Assembly (NCBI RefSeq): GCF_003046545.1
Contig: NZ_QAAA01000002.1
Location: 62,001-126,000, forward strand
Origin: Rhodovulum imhoffii
Lineage (GTDB): Bacteria > Pseudomonadota > Alphaproteobacteria > Rhodobacterales > Rhodobacteraceae
Direction of reading: 5' to 3'
DNA: 64,000 nucleotides
Part shown: positions 17,121 through 40,685 of the stretch, piece by piece
Layout: the number at the start of each line of letters is the position of its first letter
How positions within the stretch are numbered: position 1 is the stretch's first letter
The notes under the pieces: model-generated
Told to the model about the DNA's origin: nothing
Databases searched by the model: none
What the model saw: only the letters and a program-made list of their open reading frames with translations
Made by a program: the position numbers and the translations under genes

Positions 17121-18329
17121 TTGACTCGCCGGGCCGGGCGCGCTTCAACCCTTCACCTGAGCCAGCACGCCGGGAGACACACCATCACACGCAAGGACAT
17201 CCCCATCACCACCGAACGCACCGCCCGGCAATTCATACGCCACCCGCGGCCCGACCGGCATGCCCTGCAAACCGGCGCGCTGGTACTTATCGCCTTCGCG
17301 GTGATGCTGCTTTTGCTGGTCAAGGCAAAGTTTCTGCTGATCTCGCTGGCAACGGCGATCATGGTCTTCAGCTTCACCAGCGATGCGATCAACTTCATCG
17401 CCACACGCCGCATCGGCCCCCTGCGGGTGCCCAACTGGCTGGCTTCCATCGCGGCGCTGATCCTCATAACGCTGACGCTTCTGGGGGTGACGTCGCTGGT
17501 GCTTTCACAGGTGAATACGGTGCTGAGCACCGCCCTGACCTATGTCGAAAGCACCCCTGCGGCGATTGCCTCGATGTTTTCCTGGGCCGGCCCGGACGTG
17601 GAGATGGCAGTGCTCAATTCTGTCCAGACGCTGGATGTCTCCAGCTACCTGAAATCGCTGGCCGGACAGGCGGGCAGCCTGATGCAGGGAACCGTTCTGG
17701 TGATTCTGTTCGTCACCTTTCTGTTCGGGGAACGGATATGGTTCTCGACCAAACTGACCAATTTCTTCGGAGACCCCGAAACCGCCGAACAGGTCGGGGA
17801 CATCGTCACCTCGATCATTTACAAGGTGAACTATTACCTGCTGATCAAGACCGCCGTCAGCGCCGCGACCGGGTTCTTGGTGTATCTTATGGCCAGGGGC
17901 TTTGGTCTGGACCTGGCGGTTGCCCTCGGCATCATGGCTTATATCCTGAATTTCATTCCCAATATCGGGTCTATCGTGGCGACGCTTCTGGTCACGCTGG
18001 TCACCTACGTGCAGTTCACCGATCCGGCGTTAACGGTCGCCGTGTTCCTGACCGTCTCGGGGTTGCAGTTTTTCATTGGCAATGTCATAGACCCTATCCT
18101 GATGGGCCGGGCGCTGCGGCTTTCGACTTTTGGCATCCTGCTGTTCCTGGCTTTCTGGGGGGCGGTTTGGGGCATACCGGGAATGTTCCTTTCGGTCCCG
18201 ATCATGGTCGGCACGCTGATCGTCTGCAGCCACATTCCCAGCCTGCGCCCGATCGCGGTACTCCTCTCGCGTGAGGGGTTGCCGGAACCCGTACCCGACC
18301 GATCCCTGAGAACCGATGAGGCCGCCTGA
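17121..18329 (+). CDS. AI-2E family (DUF20/PerM-like) membrane transporter
   Basis: About 380-402 aa polytopic inner-membrane protein with seven to eight hydrophobic segments: an N-terminal pair near residues 50-85, one at about 100-125, and a cluster in the C-terminal half. It carries the family's FIPNIGSIVATLLVTLV and GRALRLSTFGILLFLAF stretches. Family members export small molecules or ions; the AI-2 link is not general. The start is uncertain: the only conventional codon is TTG 17121, without a good ribosome binding site, whereas a GGGAG at 17170 precedes a non-standard ATC at 17184. The N-terminal 40 residues should be treated as provisional. Confidence 0.82.
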   Translation: MTRRAGRASTLHLSQHAGRHTITRKDIPITTERTARQFIRHPRPDRHALQTGALVLIAFAVMLLLLVKAKFLLISLATAIMVFSFTSDAINFIATRRIGPLRVPNWLASIAALILITLTLLGVTSLVLSQVNTVLSTALTYVESTPAAIASMFSWAGPDVEMAVLNSVQTLDVSSYLKSLAGQAGSLMQGTVLVILFVTFLFGERIWFSTKLTNFFGDPETAEQVGDIVTSIIYKVNYYLLIKTAVSAATGFLVYLMARGFGLDLAVALGIMAYILNFIPNIGSIVATLLVTLVTYVQFTDPALTVAVFLTVSGLQFFIGNVIDPILMGRALRLSTFGILLFLAFWGAVWGIPGMFLSVPIMVGTLIVCSHIPSLRPIAVLLSREGLPEPVPDRSLRTDEAA

Positions 18330-38262: not shown

Positions 38263-38472
38263 TCAGCCTGCGGTTTCGCGGTTTGACCTGAGCGAAGTTC
38301 CCGGGCCAGTACAGACTTGCCGATGGACGAACTGGCCTGCCCCTATCGGGTGGTCCGGTTTCAGTCTTAGTGCATGACGGGTCTCGGCCACCGATCGGCC
38401 CTGCGATACCAGTACGTCGACCTGCCTCAGCTTCGCGACGATCTCTTCCGGCTTGTGCCTCTTCTGTCCCAT
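38263..38472 (-). pseudogene. IS3-family transposase OrfA fragment
   Basis: The frame from ATG 38472 begins MGQKRHKPEEIVAKLRQVDV and LVSQGRSVAE, the N-terminal helix-turn-helix start of IS3-family OrfA. After about 34 residues the similarity to the expected HTH stops and the rest (RHALRLKPDHPIGAG) looks like translated end-of-element DNA. No OrfB is present. It is best read as an internally deleted insertion sequence. Confidence 0.7.
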
Positions 38473-38519
38473 TCCTTCGTCCTCCAACTGGCCCGAAAGC
38501 CTACTTCAGGGAGGACCAC
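38350..38519 (-). mobile_element. Remnant of an IS3-type element with imperfect inverted ends
   Basis: GTGGTCC at 38350-38356 and GGACCAC at 38513-38519 are inverted copies flanking the OrfA start, with further loose similarity on each side (CCGGTTTCAG against TCCCTGAAG). They could be the two termini brought together by deletion of the OrfB part. Boundaries are approximate. Confidence 0.4.
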
Positions 38520-38698
38520 TTTCAGGGAGCAGACCACCGGCACCTCCTCCTTGCCTCAAAATTAGCGGGCAAAGCGTCTACAAATCTAGGGGCACCTCAG
38601 CCGAACGGCGCGGCGTTGCGCATGCCACCACGCATAAAAGTGGTTGCACCGCTGCACGGAAGCAATTAGATCACCACCTCACAAGACCTCAGGCTTGC

Positions 38699-38788
38699 GG
38701 AGAGGTGCCGGAGTGGTCGAACGGGGCGGTCTCGAAAACCGTTGAGGGTGCAAGCCCTCCCAGGGTTCGAATCCCTGTCTCTCCGCCA
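38699..38788 (+). tRNA. tRNA-Ser (CGA)
   Basis: 90 bases with encoded CCA. Acceptor GGAGAGG/CTCTCC, anticodon loop CTCGAAA (anticodon CGA), a long variable arm (TTGAGGGTGCAAGCCCTCCC) and T-arm AGGGTTCGAATCCCT. It faces the tRNA-Ser(GGA) gene 1.8 kb away in the opposite direction. Confidence 0.96.
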
Positions 38789-38814
38789 CTTGCCCCCGCG
38801 AAAGCGTTCTCCCG

Positions 38815-38840
38815 ATCCGGCTGCGGCCGGATTTTCTCGT
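38815..38840 (+). terminator. Terminator after tRNA-Ser (CGA)
   Basis: Perfect 7-bp stem ATCCGGC/GCCGGAT around a TGCG loop, followed by TTTCTCGTT, 27 bases after the tRNA. Confidence 0.72.
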
Positions 38841-39070
38841 TGTATTCGAGGGTTATGCGGTTGGGGCTGAGCACTGCCCCTGCTGCCAGGCGGCCCGGAG
38901 GCGGTCTCACAGGGCCGATATTCTCCGGACCTCGTGACTGCGCCAATTTGGTGAATTTCTTGCAAGTAACTGAAAGCGGAAAACTTTTTGAGAGCGTCCG
39001 CGAAGCGGTTCGACGTGGGTGGCGTTAGCGAGATGGAACAGAATTCCAACTTGCTACCGCCTTGGCGGCC
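38841..39070. other. Intergenic DNA between tRNA-Ser (CGA) and the chimeric pseudogene
   Basis: 230 bases without a credible gene. An open frame on the minus strand that runs across the tRNA is an artefact of the tRNA complement. Confidence 0.5.
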
Positions 39071-39543
39071 TCACTCGGAGGCGCAGTCTGACATGCCTTG
39101 AGAGGCTTCCCAGTCGGCGTAATTGCGTCCGTCCGGGAGTTTCCAGAGGATCCGGCCATTGGCGCTCGCACCAATGACCGCCGCAGCTGCGGCAGAGGCA
39201 GACGTGAAGCTGTAGGCGCTTGTGAAGACAAGAAAATCGCCTTCCTCGCGGAGCACACCCTTCTCGACAAGGGTGTTCCGGAGCGTGACCGTCCCTCTCG
39301 GTATTGTTCGCGTCGTCCGGACCCTTGCCCTCGAACCTGCTGCGACGACGAAATCCCCGGAGGGCCCAATTCCCATCTCTGCCGCGAAGCCCTCGCCTCG
39401 GAAGAAGAACCGAGGGCTTTCATGGATTTCAGCCTCTGGCAGTTCTCGCCCTGCGATCTGCTCCGGCGCACGACCGCGGACTTCTCGGAAGAGATCCCAG
39501 CCCAGGGCTCCAACCAGCGTTTTTGTCTGATCCACGAACTCGT
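39071..39543 (-). pseudogene. C-terminal fragment of a DUF4357-containing protein
   Basis: In one frame the minus strand reads EDYERLDEFVDQTKTLVGAL, GWDLFREVRGRAP, and then a DUF4357-like segment (RGTVTLRNTLVEKGVLREEG, FTSASAAAAAVIGASANGR, WKLPDGRNYADWEASQ). DUF4357 usually closes GIY-YIG nuclease-type or restriction-associated proteins. The expected N-terminal part is missing. An ATG at 39535 exists in frame but is unlikely to be a native start. The upstream end joins the DUF3883 fragment in another frame. Confidence 0.62.
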
Positions 39544-40197
39544 CCAGCCGTTCGTAGTCTTCACCTCGATCAGCCGCGACCGGCCATCCTGCTCGAAGCT
39601 GGCGATGTCGTAGCCGGCACCGTCACCGTCCTCCTCCGACACCCAGCGGACCTTGCGCGCGAGGTCGTCGCGGCCCGCCGCCCGCAGCGCCAACCGCTCA
39701 TGCGCCAGCACGCGTTCCTCTCCCGCGCGGCCGAGGACACGGTTACGCTCGTCGCGGCCGGCTACGTCGGACTTCCTGGCGATCCGCAACATCAGGTCCA
39801 GCTCCTGCGGTGGCGGCTGGTTCGACAGCGTCGGCGGCGGCCCGATCCAGATCTGCGCCGCATCGTGAAGGCCGGTGGGTGGTCGGTTGCCGGGGACCCG
39901 CAGGACCCACTCCGGATGCGAGTTCATCCATCGCAGAACGGCATCCTCAAGCGAGCTCTGGAAGTTGAAGGCGGGTGCGAGGCCAGTCAGCCAGGTCTCA
40001 CCTAGCGCCTTGAGCACGGCACTGATGTTCTGGTGCTTGTATTCGATTGCCTTTGCGGACCGATCGATCCGGTCTGCAAGCTGTCGATATGATGCCGCCT
40101 TGTTCAGGGGTTTCCCCGCGAGGTCATCGAACAGCATCGCGAAGTAATCCGCGACGATCAGATCGTTCTCTTCGTCCGTCCAGGGCCCGGTCGACAT
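39544..40197 (-). pseudogene. N-terminal fragment of a DUF3883 (PD-(D/E)XK-like) protein
   Basis: From ATG 40197 the first 218 residues read as an intact protein start (MSTGPWTDEENDLIVADYFA), ending in a DUF3883 segment. That segment is GRAGEERVLAHERLAL, GYDIASFEQDGRSRLIEVKTT and NGW; GYD and IEVK correspond to the nuclease-fold acidic and lysine residues. After W218 the same frame stays open to 39025 but carries only low-complexity shadow residues, while the next frame carries a DUF4357 tail. The gene is therefore truncated in its third domain element. Such proteins accompany defence and restriction loci. Confidence 0.66.
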
Positions 40198-40539
40198 TGC
40201 GCCAGGCTATGGGCGCGAAGTCTGTTTGTCATCAGAGACTTCCGGCAGGGATTTCGCTGCTATCGTCGGCCCCATGCACCAGCGCACCGGACCGGTGATC
40301 GGCCGCCACGGAGCCGTCCTTCTGACCGCCCTGCGCCTTCGTGTCGGTCTCCGTCACCGGATTATCTCGCGAACGGGGCGACCCCATGAACCCGGCAACC
40401 CATTGGAAATGCGAGAATGTTTTGCGCCGTCCTGTGGCCGTCGAGGGGCGCTCGAAGAGAGACGCAGGCCATTCGGAGACCCTTTCTACGTCAAGCGCCC
40501 GGTCTCCGAAGGGCGGATGGCCCTGCCAACGCCCTTTGA
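40198..40539. other. Intergenic DNA upstream of the DUF3883 fragment
   Basis: About 340 bases. Several frames are open on both strands, but none shows a ribosome binding site or protein family features. I see nothing assignable. Confidence 0.5.
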
Positions 40540-40573
40540 AACAAAAAGAAAAAGGGCCCCAATCGGGGCCCTT
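40540..40573 (-). terminator. Terminator after tRNA-Ser (GGA)
   Basis: On the minus strand a perfect 9-bp stem (AAGGGCCCC with GGGGCCCTT) around a 4-base loop is followed by TTTCTTTTTGT. It lies 23 bases beyond the tRNA 3' end. Strong intrinsic terminator. Confidence 0.88.
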
Positions 40574-40595
40574 GGACGGATTCAGCATTTGAGTG

Positions 40596-40685
40596 TGGCG
40601 GAGAGACAGGGATTCGAACCCTGGAGACGGTTTCCCGCCTACACGCGTTCCAGGCGTGCGCCTTCGACCACTCGGCCACCTCTCC
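40596..40685 (-). tRNA. tRNA-Ser (GGA)
   Basis: 90 bases with encoded CCA on the minus strand. Acceptor GGAGAGG/CTCTCC, anticodon stem CACGC/GCGTG with loop CTGGAAC (anticodon GGA), long variable arm, T-arm AGGGTTCGAATCCCT. Its 3' third is identical to that of tRNA-Ser (CGA). Confidence 0.96.

What the first reader, a model, noticed from the sequence alone, without database searches (positions are those of the whole stretch)
39500..39600. Chimeric pseudogene joining a DUF3883 start to a DUF4357 end
The minus strand carries a good DUF3883 protein start up to K-T-T-N-G-W, and from the same bases, one frame over, a good DUF4357-type C-terminus (E-D-Y-E-R-L-D-E-F onward). This is the expected scar of a deletion that fused two restriction/defence-associated genes, probably within GAAGACTACGAACGGCTGG. 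It implies that a larger defence island once stood here.
Basis: partly seen in the sequence, partly recalled or inferred. Interest (0 to 1): 0.55.

Follow-up and report, generated by a model that had tools for sequence, protein, structure and literature searches.

The report
Fused relic of two defence genes
Two unrelated bacterial anti-virus candidate genes, each the remnant of a mobile DNA element parked at a different serine-tRNA gene, have been joined into one broken gene; the relic led to a widespread family of such elements that seem to insert with an enzyme type thought not to use tRNA genes.

Summary
On the minus strand, 40197-39544 is the first 218 codons of a NOV_C (old DUF3883) gene, PADLOC candidate PDC-S36. 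From 39546 to 39071 it is the C-terminal half of a GIY-YIG/DUF4357 gene, PADLOC candidate PDC-S14, in another frame. Intact, separate parents exist in relatives. They meet at a 3-bp overlap, TGG at 39544-39546.

NOV_C belongs to an element end behind tRNA-Ser(GGA). The DUF4357 tail belongs to a different element end behind the facing tRNA-Ser(CGA); a Paracoccus sanguinis genome shows that end intact. Both ends begin exactly at the tRNA 3' end (CTCCGCCA). In relatives these ends go with a large serine recombinase plus DUF2924, and often restriction-modification cargo. Searching from the recombinase alone, 23 of 40 loci had a tRNA-Ser at the expected end, none had another tRNA, and the five with neither tRNA nor end ran off a contig.

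The chimera is ordinary gene decay. The element family is the interesting part: a 2014 paper states that serine recombinases are not known to target tRNA genes.

The parts
38699..38788 (+). tRNA-Ser(CGA); its 3' end is the attachment core of the left-hand element
   Evidence: ARAGORN
38781..38975 (+). element end 'LE-A': conserved non-coding block beginning at the tRNA 3' end core CTCCGCCA
   Evidence: 18 other matches in the stretches compared, 17 of them starting at the core, 80-89% identical, behind tRNA-Ser of all four anticodons or without a tRNA
39071..39546 (-). C-terminal half of a GIY-YIG/DUF4357 gene (PDC-S14), front half lost
39544..39546 (-). fusion junction, 3-bp overlap TGG shared by both parents
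39544..40197 (-). first 218 codons of a NOV_C/DUF3883 gene (PDC-S36), last ~60 codons lost
39025..40197 (-). 390-codon open frame that runs through the junction; residues after the join are wrong-frame
40198..40603 (-). element end 'LE-N' between tRNA-Ser(GGA) and NOV_C, starting at the same core CTCCGCCA
40596..40685 (-). tRNA-Ser(GGA); its 3' end faces that of tRNA-Ser(CGA)
   Evidence: ARAGORN
38439..38536 (.). repeat that also lies at the ends of three other contigs, perhaps an insertion-sequence end, left of tRNA-Ser(CGA); its link to the fusion is a guess
   Evidence: 89-90% matches at contig ends

Best explanation
The feature is a dead chimera made by illegitimate joining between two mobile elements. 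One element sat behind tRNA-Ser(GGA) and began with a NOV_C gene (PDC-S36); another sat behind the facing tRNA-Ser(CGA) and had, next to its tRNA-side end, a GIY-YIG/DUF4357 gene (PDC-S14) pointing at the tRNA. A deletion with a 3-bp TGG overlap removed the NOV_C tail, everything between (in intact relatives: serine recombinase, DUF2924, restriction genes) and the front of the GIY-YIG gene. What remains is two tRNA-Ser genes, two element ends and an out-of-frame fusion. Shown: both parents, the join, the two element ends, an intact template for each side. Inferred: deletion as the event, the loss of mobility genes from this spot, and that the serine recombinase is what inserts these elements at tRNA-Ser 3' ends.
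For: Halves and join. CGA side: in L180 (G023) the block LE-A is followed by an intact PDC-S14 gene pointing at it, then restriction-type genes (read by eye), a small ORF, a serine recombinase and DUF2924; stop-to-core spacing is about 280 bp there and 290 bp in the window. GGA side: of 80 NOV_C loci, 44 have a tRNA-Ser less than 600 bp upstream on the same strand (GGA 17, TGA 13, GCT 11, CGA 3), 19 have only the core at that spacing, 4 lack upstream sequence, 13 have neither; a serine recombinase converges on NOV_C within 3 kb in 48 of 62 loci with enough sequence (loci). Recombinase-first test: of 40 loci, tRNA-Ser in the expected orientation in 23, an element end in 32, one or the other in 35; the other 5 reach a contig end first; no other tRNA in any of the 40. 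tRNA-Ser(GGA) is nearly identical up to CCA in the 9 genomes compared and the flanks change right there. Lost parts not found in the draft.
Against: No relative was found with both elements intact facing each other at these two tRNA genes, so the state before the deletion is reconstructed. G161 has the two tRNA-Ser genes convergent about 38.6 kb apart, but with LE-A at GGA and other cargo. 13 of 80 NOV_C loci have neither tRNA nor core, and 14 of 62 have no recombinase in range. The far end of a single recombinase-bearing element was not located. The core alone is not rare: CCCTCCGCCAC occurs 6 times in this genome against 4 for the reversed control. Tyrosine-integrase prophages also use tRNA-Ser in Paracoccus (PMC6536676, passages), so the recombinase's role is an association only. 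The draft has 59 contigs, so lost pieces could lie in gaps.
Confidence: 0.85

Rival explanations
1. Balanced inversion or translocation between the two elements, leaving a reciprocal junction elsewhere.
For: The surroundings are rearranged: in the hits listed for the other genus genomes mtnA, the tRNA-Asp pair, tRNA-Ser(CGA) and tRNA-Ser(GGA) are never adjacent, and the usual CGA flank (obg-proA) is on another contig here.
Against: No reciprocal pieces found: the GIY-YIG query matched only its residues 132-291, in the window; the NOV_C tail was found only in the intact paralogue on C1.
Confidence: 0.1
2. Both genes belonged to one element at tRNA-Ser(GGA) and the deletion was internal to it.
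For: They are co-directional and on one strand.
Against: A GIY-YIG/DUF4357 gene was seen in 0 of 80 NOV_C loci, within at most 8 kb either side; L180 places the gene next to LE-A, as in the window.
Confidence: 0.08
3. The 390-residue fusion product is a working protein.
For: The frame is open.
Against: The residues after the join are the wrong frame, an openness also seen in the intact gene; the NOV_C domain is cut at profile position 51 of 91 for the genuine part.
Confidence: 0.03
4. Assembly artefact joining two places.
For: Element ends are repeated in the genome.
Against: The join lies in coding sequence with only 3 bp shared; the nearest copy of the NOV_C half in this genome is only 76% identical.
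Confidence: 0.04
5. One-base frameshift in a real two-domain gene.
For: The two frames overlap at the join.
Against: The parents are separate full-length genes, and no Pfam or PADLOC family matched covers both halves.
Confidence: 0.01

Closest known systems
PADLOC PDC-S36 (NOV_C/DUF3883 single-gene candidate)
   Same: The intact relative L066 matches nearly the whole profile (1-279 of 280, 3.5e-123); the window half matches 1-222
   Different: The window copy lacks the C-terminal part of the domain
PADLOC PDC-S14 (GIY-YIG + DUF4357 candidate)
   Same: The intact relative L024 matches 34-297 of 301 (3.5e-82); the window half matches 156-296
   Different: The window copy lacks the whole GIY-YIG half
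tRNA-integrated genomic islands (Islander, PMC4383910)
   Same: Elements start exactly at a tRNA 3' end, leave the tRNA intact, and form tandem arrays
   Different: The associated recombinase is a large serine recombinase, which that paper says is not known to target tRNA genes (passages read)
Serine-recombinase prophages of Paracoccus (PMC6536676)
   Same: Same bacterial family; of 16 such prophages a site was predicted for only one (Pami6, tRNA-Met), and 11 recombinases form one cluster without an identified site (passages read)
   Different: Those are phages; the relationship of their recombinases to the one here was not tested
Acidithiobacillus phage AcaML1 recombinase
   Same: Best row in the phage collection, 51% identity over 99% of the query
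   Different: No attachment-site comparison was made

Membership tests
PDC-S36 / NOV_C | Full NOV_C domain and full-length candidate profile | tested here: not met
   Window copy: NOV_C 1-51 of 91, PDC-S36 1-222 of 280; the intact relative L066 meets it
PDC-S14 | GIY-YIG half plus DUF4357 half | tested here: not met
   Only the DUF4357 half is present; parent L024 has both, its GIY-YIG just below the Pfam cut-off (20.7 against 22.6 bits)
PDC-S36 and PDC-S14 | Anti-phage activity | not testable with these tools
   PDC names are, as I recall, PADLOC's phage defence candidates; nothing here tests activity
tRNA-integrated element | Element end abuts the 3' end of an intact tRNA gene | tested here: met
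   Both window ends begin at CTCCGCCA of an intact tRNA-Ser; flanks change exactly after CCA in the 9 genomes compared. Whether the four non-element flanks there are empty sites was not tested
tRNA-integrated element | Second copy of the tRNA 3' core at the far end | tested here: inconclusive
   Found where elements stand in tandem, with a conserved 37-bp right end; not found at the far end of a single element, nor in the window
tRNA-integrated element | Own integrase | tested here: not met
   No recombinase ORF is left between the two tRNA genes; relatives carry Resolvase+Recombinase domain proteins
Large serine recombinase element | Recombinase shown to catalyse integration at that site | not testable with these tools
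   Association only

The most novel reading that the evidence does not exclude
A family of large serine recombinases in Rhodobacteraceae and some neighbours inserts elements at the 3' end of tRNA-Ser genes regardless of anticodon, stacks them in tandem through a shared CTCCGCCA core, and uses the stretch between recombinase and tRNA as a slot for defence genes, with NOV_C (PDC-S36) as the resident gene of one branch. In this genome all four tRNA-Ser types seen carry such an end (GCT and TGA with an intact recombinase, CGA and GGA collapsed into the chimera), so recombination between elements may also rearrange chromosomes.
Probability: 0.6. Interest if true: 0.65.

Novelty: new variant of a known kind. 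Interest (0 to 1): 0.5.

Why it matters
The broken gene itself matters little. It exposes the tRNA-side ends of a mobile element family that ties two orphan defence candidates (PDC-S36, PDC-S14) and much restriction-modification cargo to tRNA-Ser genes. If the serine recombinase is the integrase, it goes against the stated rule that only tyrosine integrases use tRNA genes, suggests where to look for serine-recombinase elements whose sites were 'not identified', and offers a conserved, multi-copy landing site.

Tried and rejected
Single two-domain family or frameshift: no matched family covers both halves. Plasmid origin: 22 plasmid records match, none covers 80% of the query, and all 20 listed lie within the NOV_C part; 2 were not listed. 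Protein-coding reading of five ORFs over the LE-A block, at 38263-38487 and right of NOV_C: no Pfam match better than E 0.18. The core as a search pattern: CCCTCCGCCAC occurs 6 times in this genome against 4 for the reversed control, so the core alone is not informative. Right end of single elements: the motif was found only in tandem-like positions, and nothing near the DUF2924 end of L062. In one search, 12 of the 80 NOV_C loci score, but most of these were used to build the matrix; the fair test is, where 9 sites in 8 of 40 loci score 40 to 56, eight of them at the start of an LE-A. Solved structures: no credible match for NOV_C (best E 0.096). AlphaFold2 of NOV_C from 24 relatives: mean pLDDT 50.9, too poor to search with, so no fold claim is made. 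Papers: ten searches; in the listings and passages seen I found no report of serine-recombinase islands at tRNA-Ser, but several of the searches were on other points and the library lacks most subscription journals. Read as passages only: PMC9580842, PMC4383910, PMC6536676, PMC12884075, PMC11476347, PMC3925955, PMC4701971, PMC8637289, PMC10654092.

Full report
1. Observation. The minus strand at 40197-39025 is one 390-codon open frame. Its first 218 codons are the N-terminal part of a NOV_C (PF13020, formerly DUF3883) protein, E 3.2e-11, profile positions 1-51 of 91; in another frame 39546-39071 carries DUF4357 (PF14267), E 3.9e-19. PADLOC independently calls the halves PDC-S36 (9.4e-92) and PDC-S14 (4.7e-38). 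This is far beyond chance.

2. Parents. In 149 sampled genomes of the family, this one included, the NOV_C half matches in 33 and the DUF4357 half in 26 at E <= 0.001. The best matches are full-length separate genes: NOV_C of about 277-281 aa (84% aa in G091, plus an intact paralogue in this genome on C1, 73%) and a GIY-YIG/DUF4357 protein of about 295-325 aa (89% aa in G130, 85% in G070). By eye, the latter follows type I or type III restriction genes in several genomes.

3. Junction. The NOV_C half aligns to L066 over chimera bases 1-654 and the DUF4357 half to L067 over bases 652-1093; the 3-base overlap is TGG at 39544-39546. So 'EDYERL' is NOV_C out of frame and the DUF4357 parent starts at DEFVDQ. 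Differences from the parents concentrate at third codon positions, so the join is recent. Neither the GIY-YIG front nor a second NOV_C tail was found elsewhere in the draft: deletion is the simplest event. A 3-bp overlap is compatible with end joining but could arise by chance.

4. The NOV_C side is a mobile element end. Among the best 80 of 329 relatives in genome contigs, a tRNA-Ser lies less than 600 bp upstream on the same strand in 44 (GGA 17, TGA 13, GCT 11, CGA 3); 19 have only the core CTCCGCCA at that spacing; 4 lack upstream sequence; 13 have neither. Twelve of the 80 score for a 37-bp motif just before the core, which I read as the right end of a preceding element in tandem; most of these served to build the motif, so this is description, not test. 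A serine recombinase converges on NOV_C within 3 kb in 48 of 62 loci with enough sequence, often with DUF2924. These 80 are the closest relatives, not an independent sample.

5. The DUF4357 side is a different element end. The block 38781-38975 (LE-A) begins at the 3' end of tRNA-Ser(CGA) and recurs, 80-89% identical, behind tRNA-Ser genes of all four anticodons or without a tRNA; of the 18 other matches aligned, one (L065) is a fragment without the core. This is the window's arrangement on the CGA side, with the gene's front cut off. It is the only LE-A stretch of the 19 examined that has this gene.

6. Recombinase-first test. The recombinase of L062 matches in 41 of 149 family genomes at E <= 1e-100. 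Of 44 full-length matches with at least 61% identity I fetched 40 (left out: G023:C10, already held as L180; G005:C5:193557; G082:C9; G110:C24). A tRNA-Ser facing the recombinase's 3' side occurs in 23 of 40; an LE or right-end motif in 32; one or the other in 35; the remaining 5 (L203, L205, L206, L209, L226) reach a contig end first. No other tRNA occurs in any of the 40 stretches, which are 5 to 19.5 kb long. The right-end motif, not trained on these loci, scores 40 to 56 at 9 sites in 8 of them, eight of the sites at the start of an LE-A. Two of the 40 are in this genome, at tRNA-Ser(GCT) and tRNA-Ser(TGA), so all four tRNA-Ser types seen here carry an element end.

7. Cargo. From 32 loci I listed 141 ORFs of at least 120 codons between recombinase and end and scanned 70 of them, from 20 LE-A loci. 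Leading Pfam families are of restriction-modification type (ResIII 9, N6_Mtase 6, DNA_methylase 5, HSDR_N 5, Methylase_S 5 of 70), with AIPR, Vsr and Abi_C at 2 each. No tyrosine integrase is among the 25 of 57 Pfam families shown; the other 32 were not shown. The choice leans towards LE-A loci; some left out look metabolic by eye (L193, L215, L230), so the cargo is not only defence.

8. Site polymorphism. For tRNA-Ser(GGA), nine genomes of the genus (this one included) share the 3' half almost letter for letter and differ right after CCA: LE-A in four, LE-N in the window, other sequence in four. Whether those four are empty sites was not tested.

9. Chromosome context. In the hits listed for the 15 other genus genomes, mtnA, the tRNA-Asp pair, tRNA-Ser(CGA) and tRNA-Ser(GGA) are never adjacent as in the window; the closest pairs I saw are mtnA and CGA about 18.5 kb apart in G159 and G162, and GGA and CGA about 38.6 kb apart and convergent in G161, which shares the window's MscS flank. 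Many lie on separate contigs, so order cannot always be judged. The usual CGA flank (obg-proA in G161) is at the start of contig C5 here. So the window interval is also a rearrangement point. The genus is probably Rhodovulum, since G150:C9 and G151:C15 have the lengths of R. bhavnagarense and R. euryhalinum contigs.

10. Known or new. [quoted passage not shown] A Paracoccus survey (PMC6536676, passages) counts 16 serine-recombinase prophages, with a site predicted for only one, in tRNA-Met; so a tRNA target for a serine recombinase is not wholly without precedent. The same survey lists tyrosine-type phages at tRNA-Ser. In the listings and passages of my ten searches I found no report of serine-recombinase islands at tRNA-Ser. 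The chimera is ordinary decay; the element family is a new variant of tRNA-integrated islands, with the recombinase's role inferred.

Noticed in passing
L065:17530-19477 (own genome, C1): A CRISPR-like array: a 28-base unit repeated 30 times at 66-67 bp spacing, close to the edge of the fetched stretch, just after an LE-A fragment at 17274-17373.
   Followed up: partly
L065:7450-10000 (own genome, C1): A 2.55-kb stretch bounded by two right-end motifs, with glutamine-synthetase-like and LysE-like ORFs (by eye) and no recombinase: perhaps a cargo-only element in a tandem array, followed by the intact NOV_C copy.
   Followed up: partly
L181, L178, L182, L184: Intact PDC-S14 genes in four genomes lie beside phage-like genes (by eye), so this gene may also travel with prophages.
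   Followed up: no
38439-38536: A ~98-bp repeat left of tRNA-Ser(CGA) also sits at the very ends of three other genomes' contigs, as an insertion sequence would.
   Followed up: partly
L190:1-200 (own genome, C5 start): A transposase-like fragment (by eye) sits about where tRNA-Ser(CGA) would be expected next to obg-proA.
   Followed up: no
L062:6364-10331: Possibly a minimal ~3.6-kb element (NOV_C, small ORF, recombinase, DUF2924) between tRNA-Ser(GCT) and tRNA-Phe; its far end was not found.
   Followed up: partly
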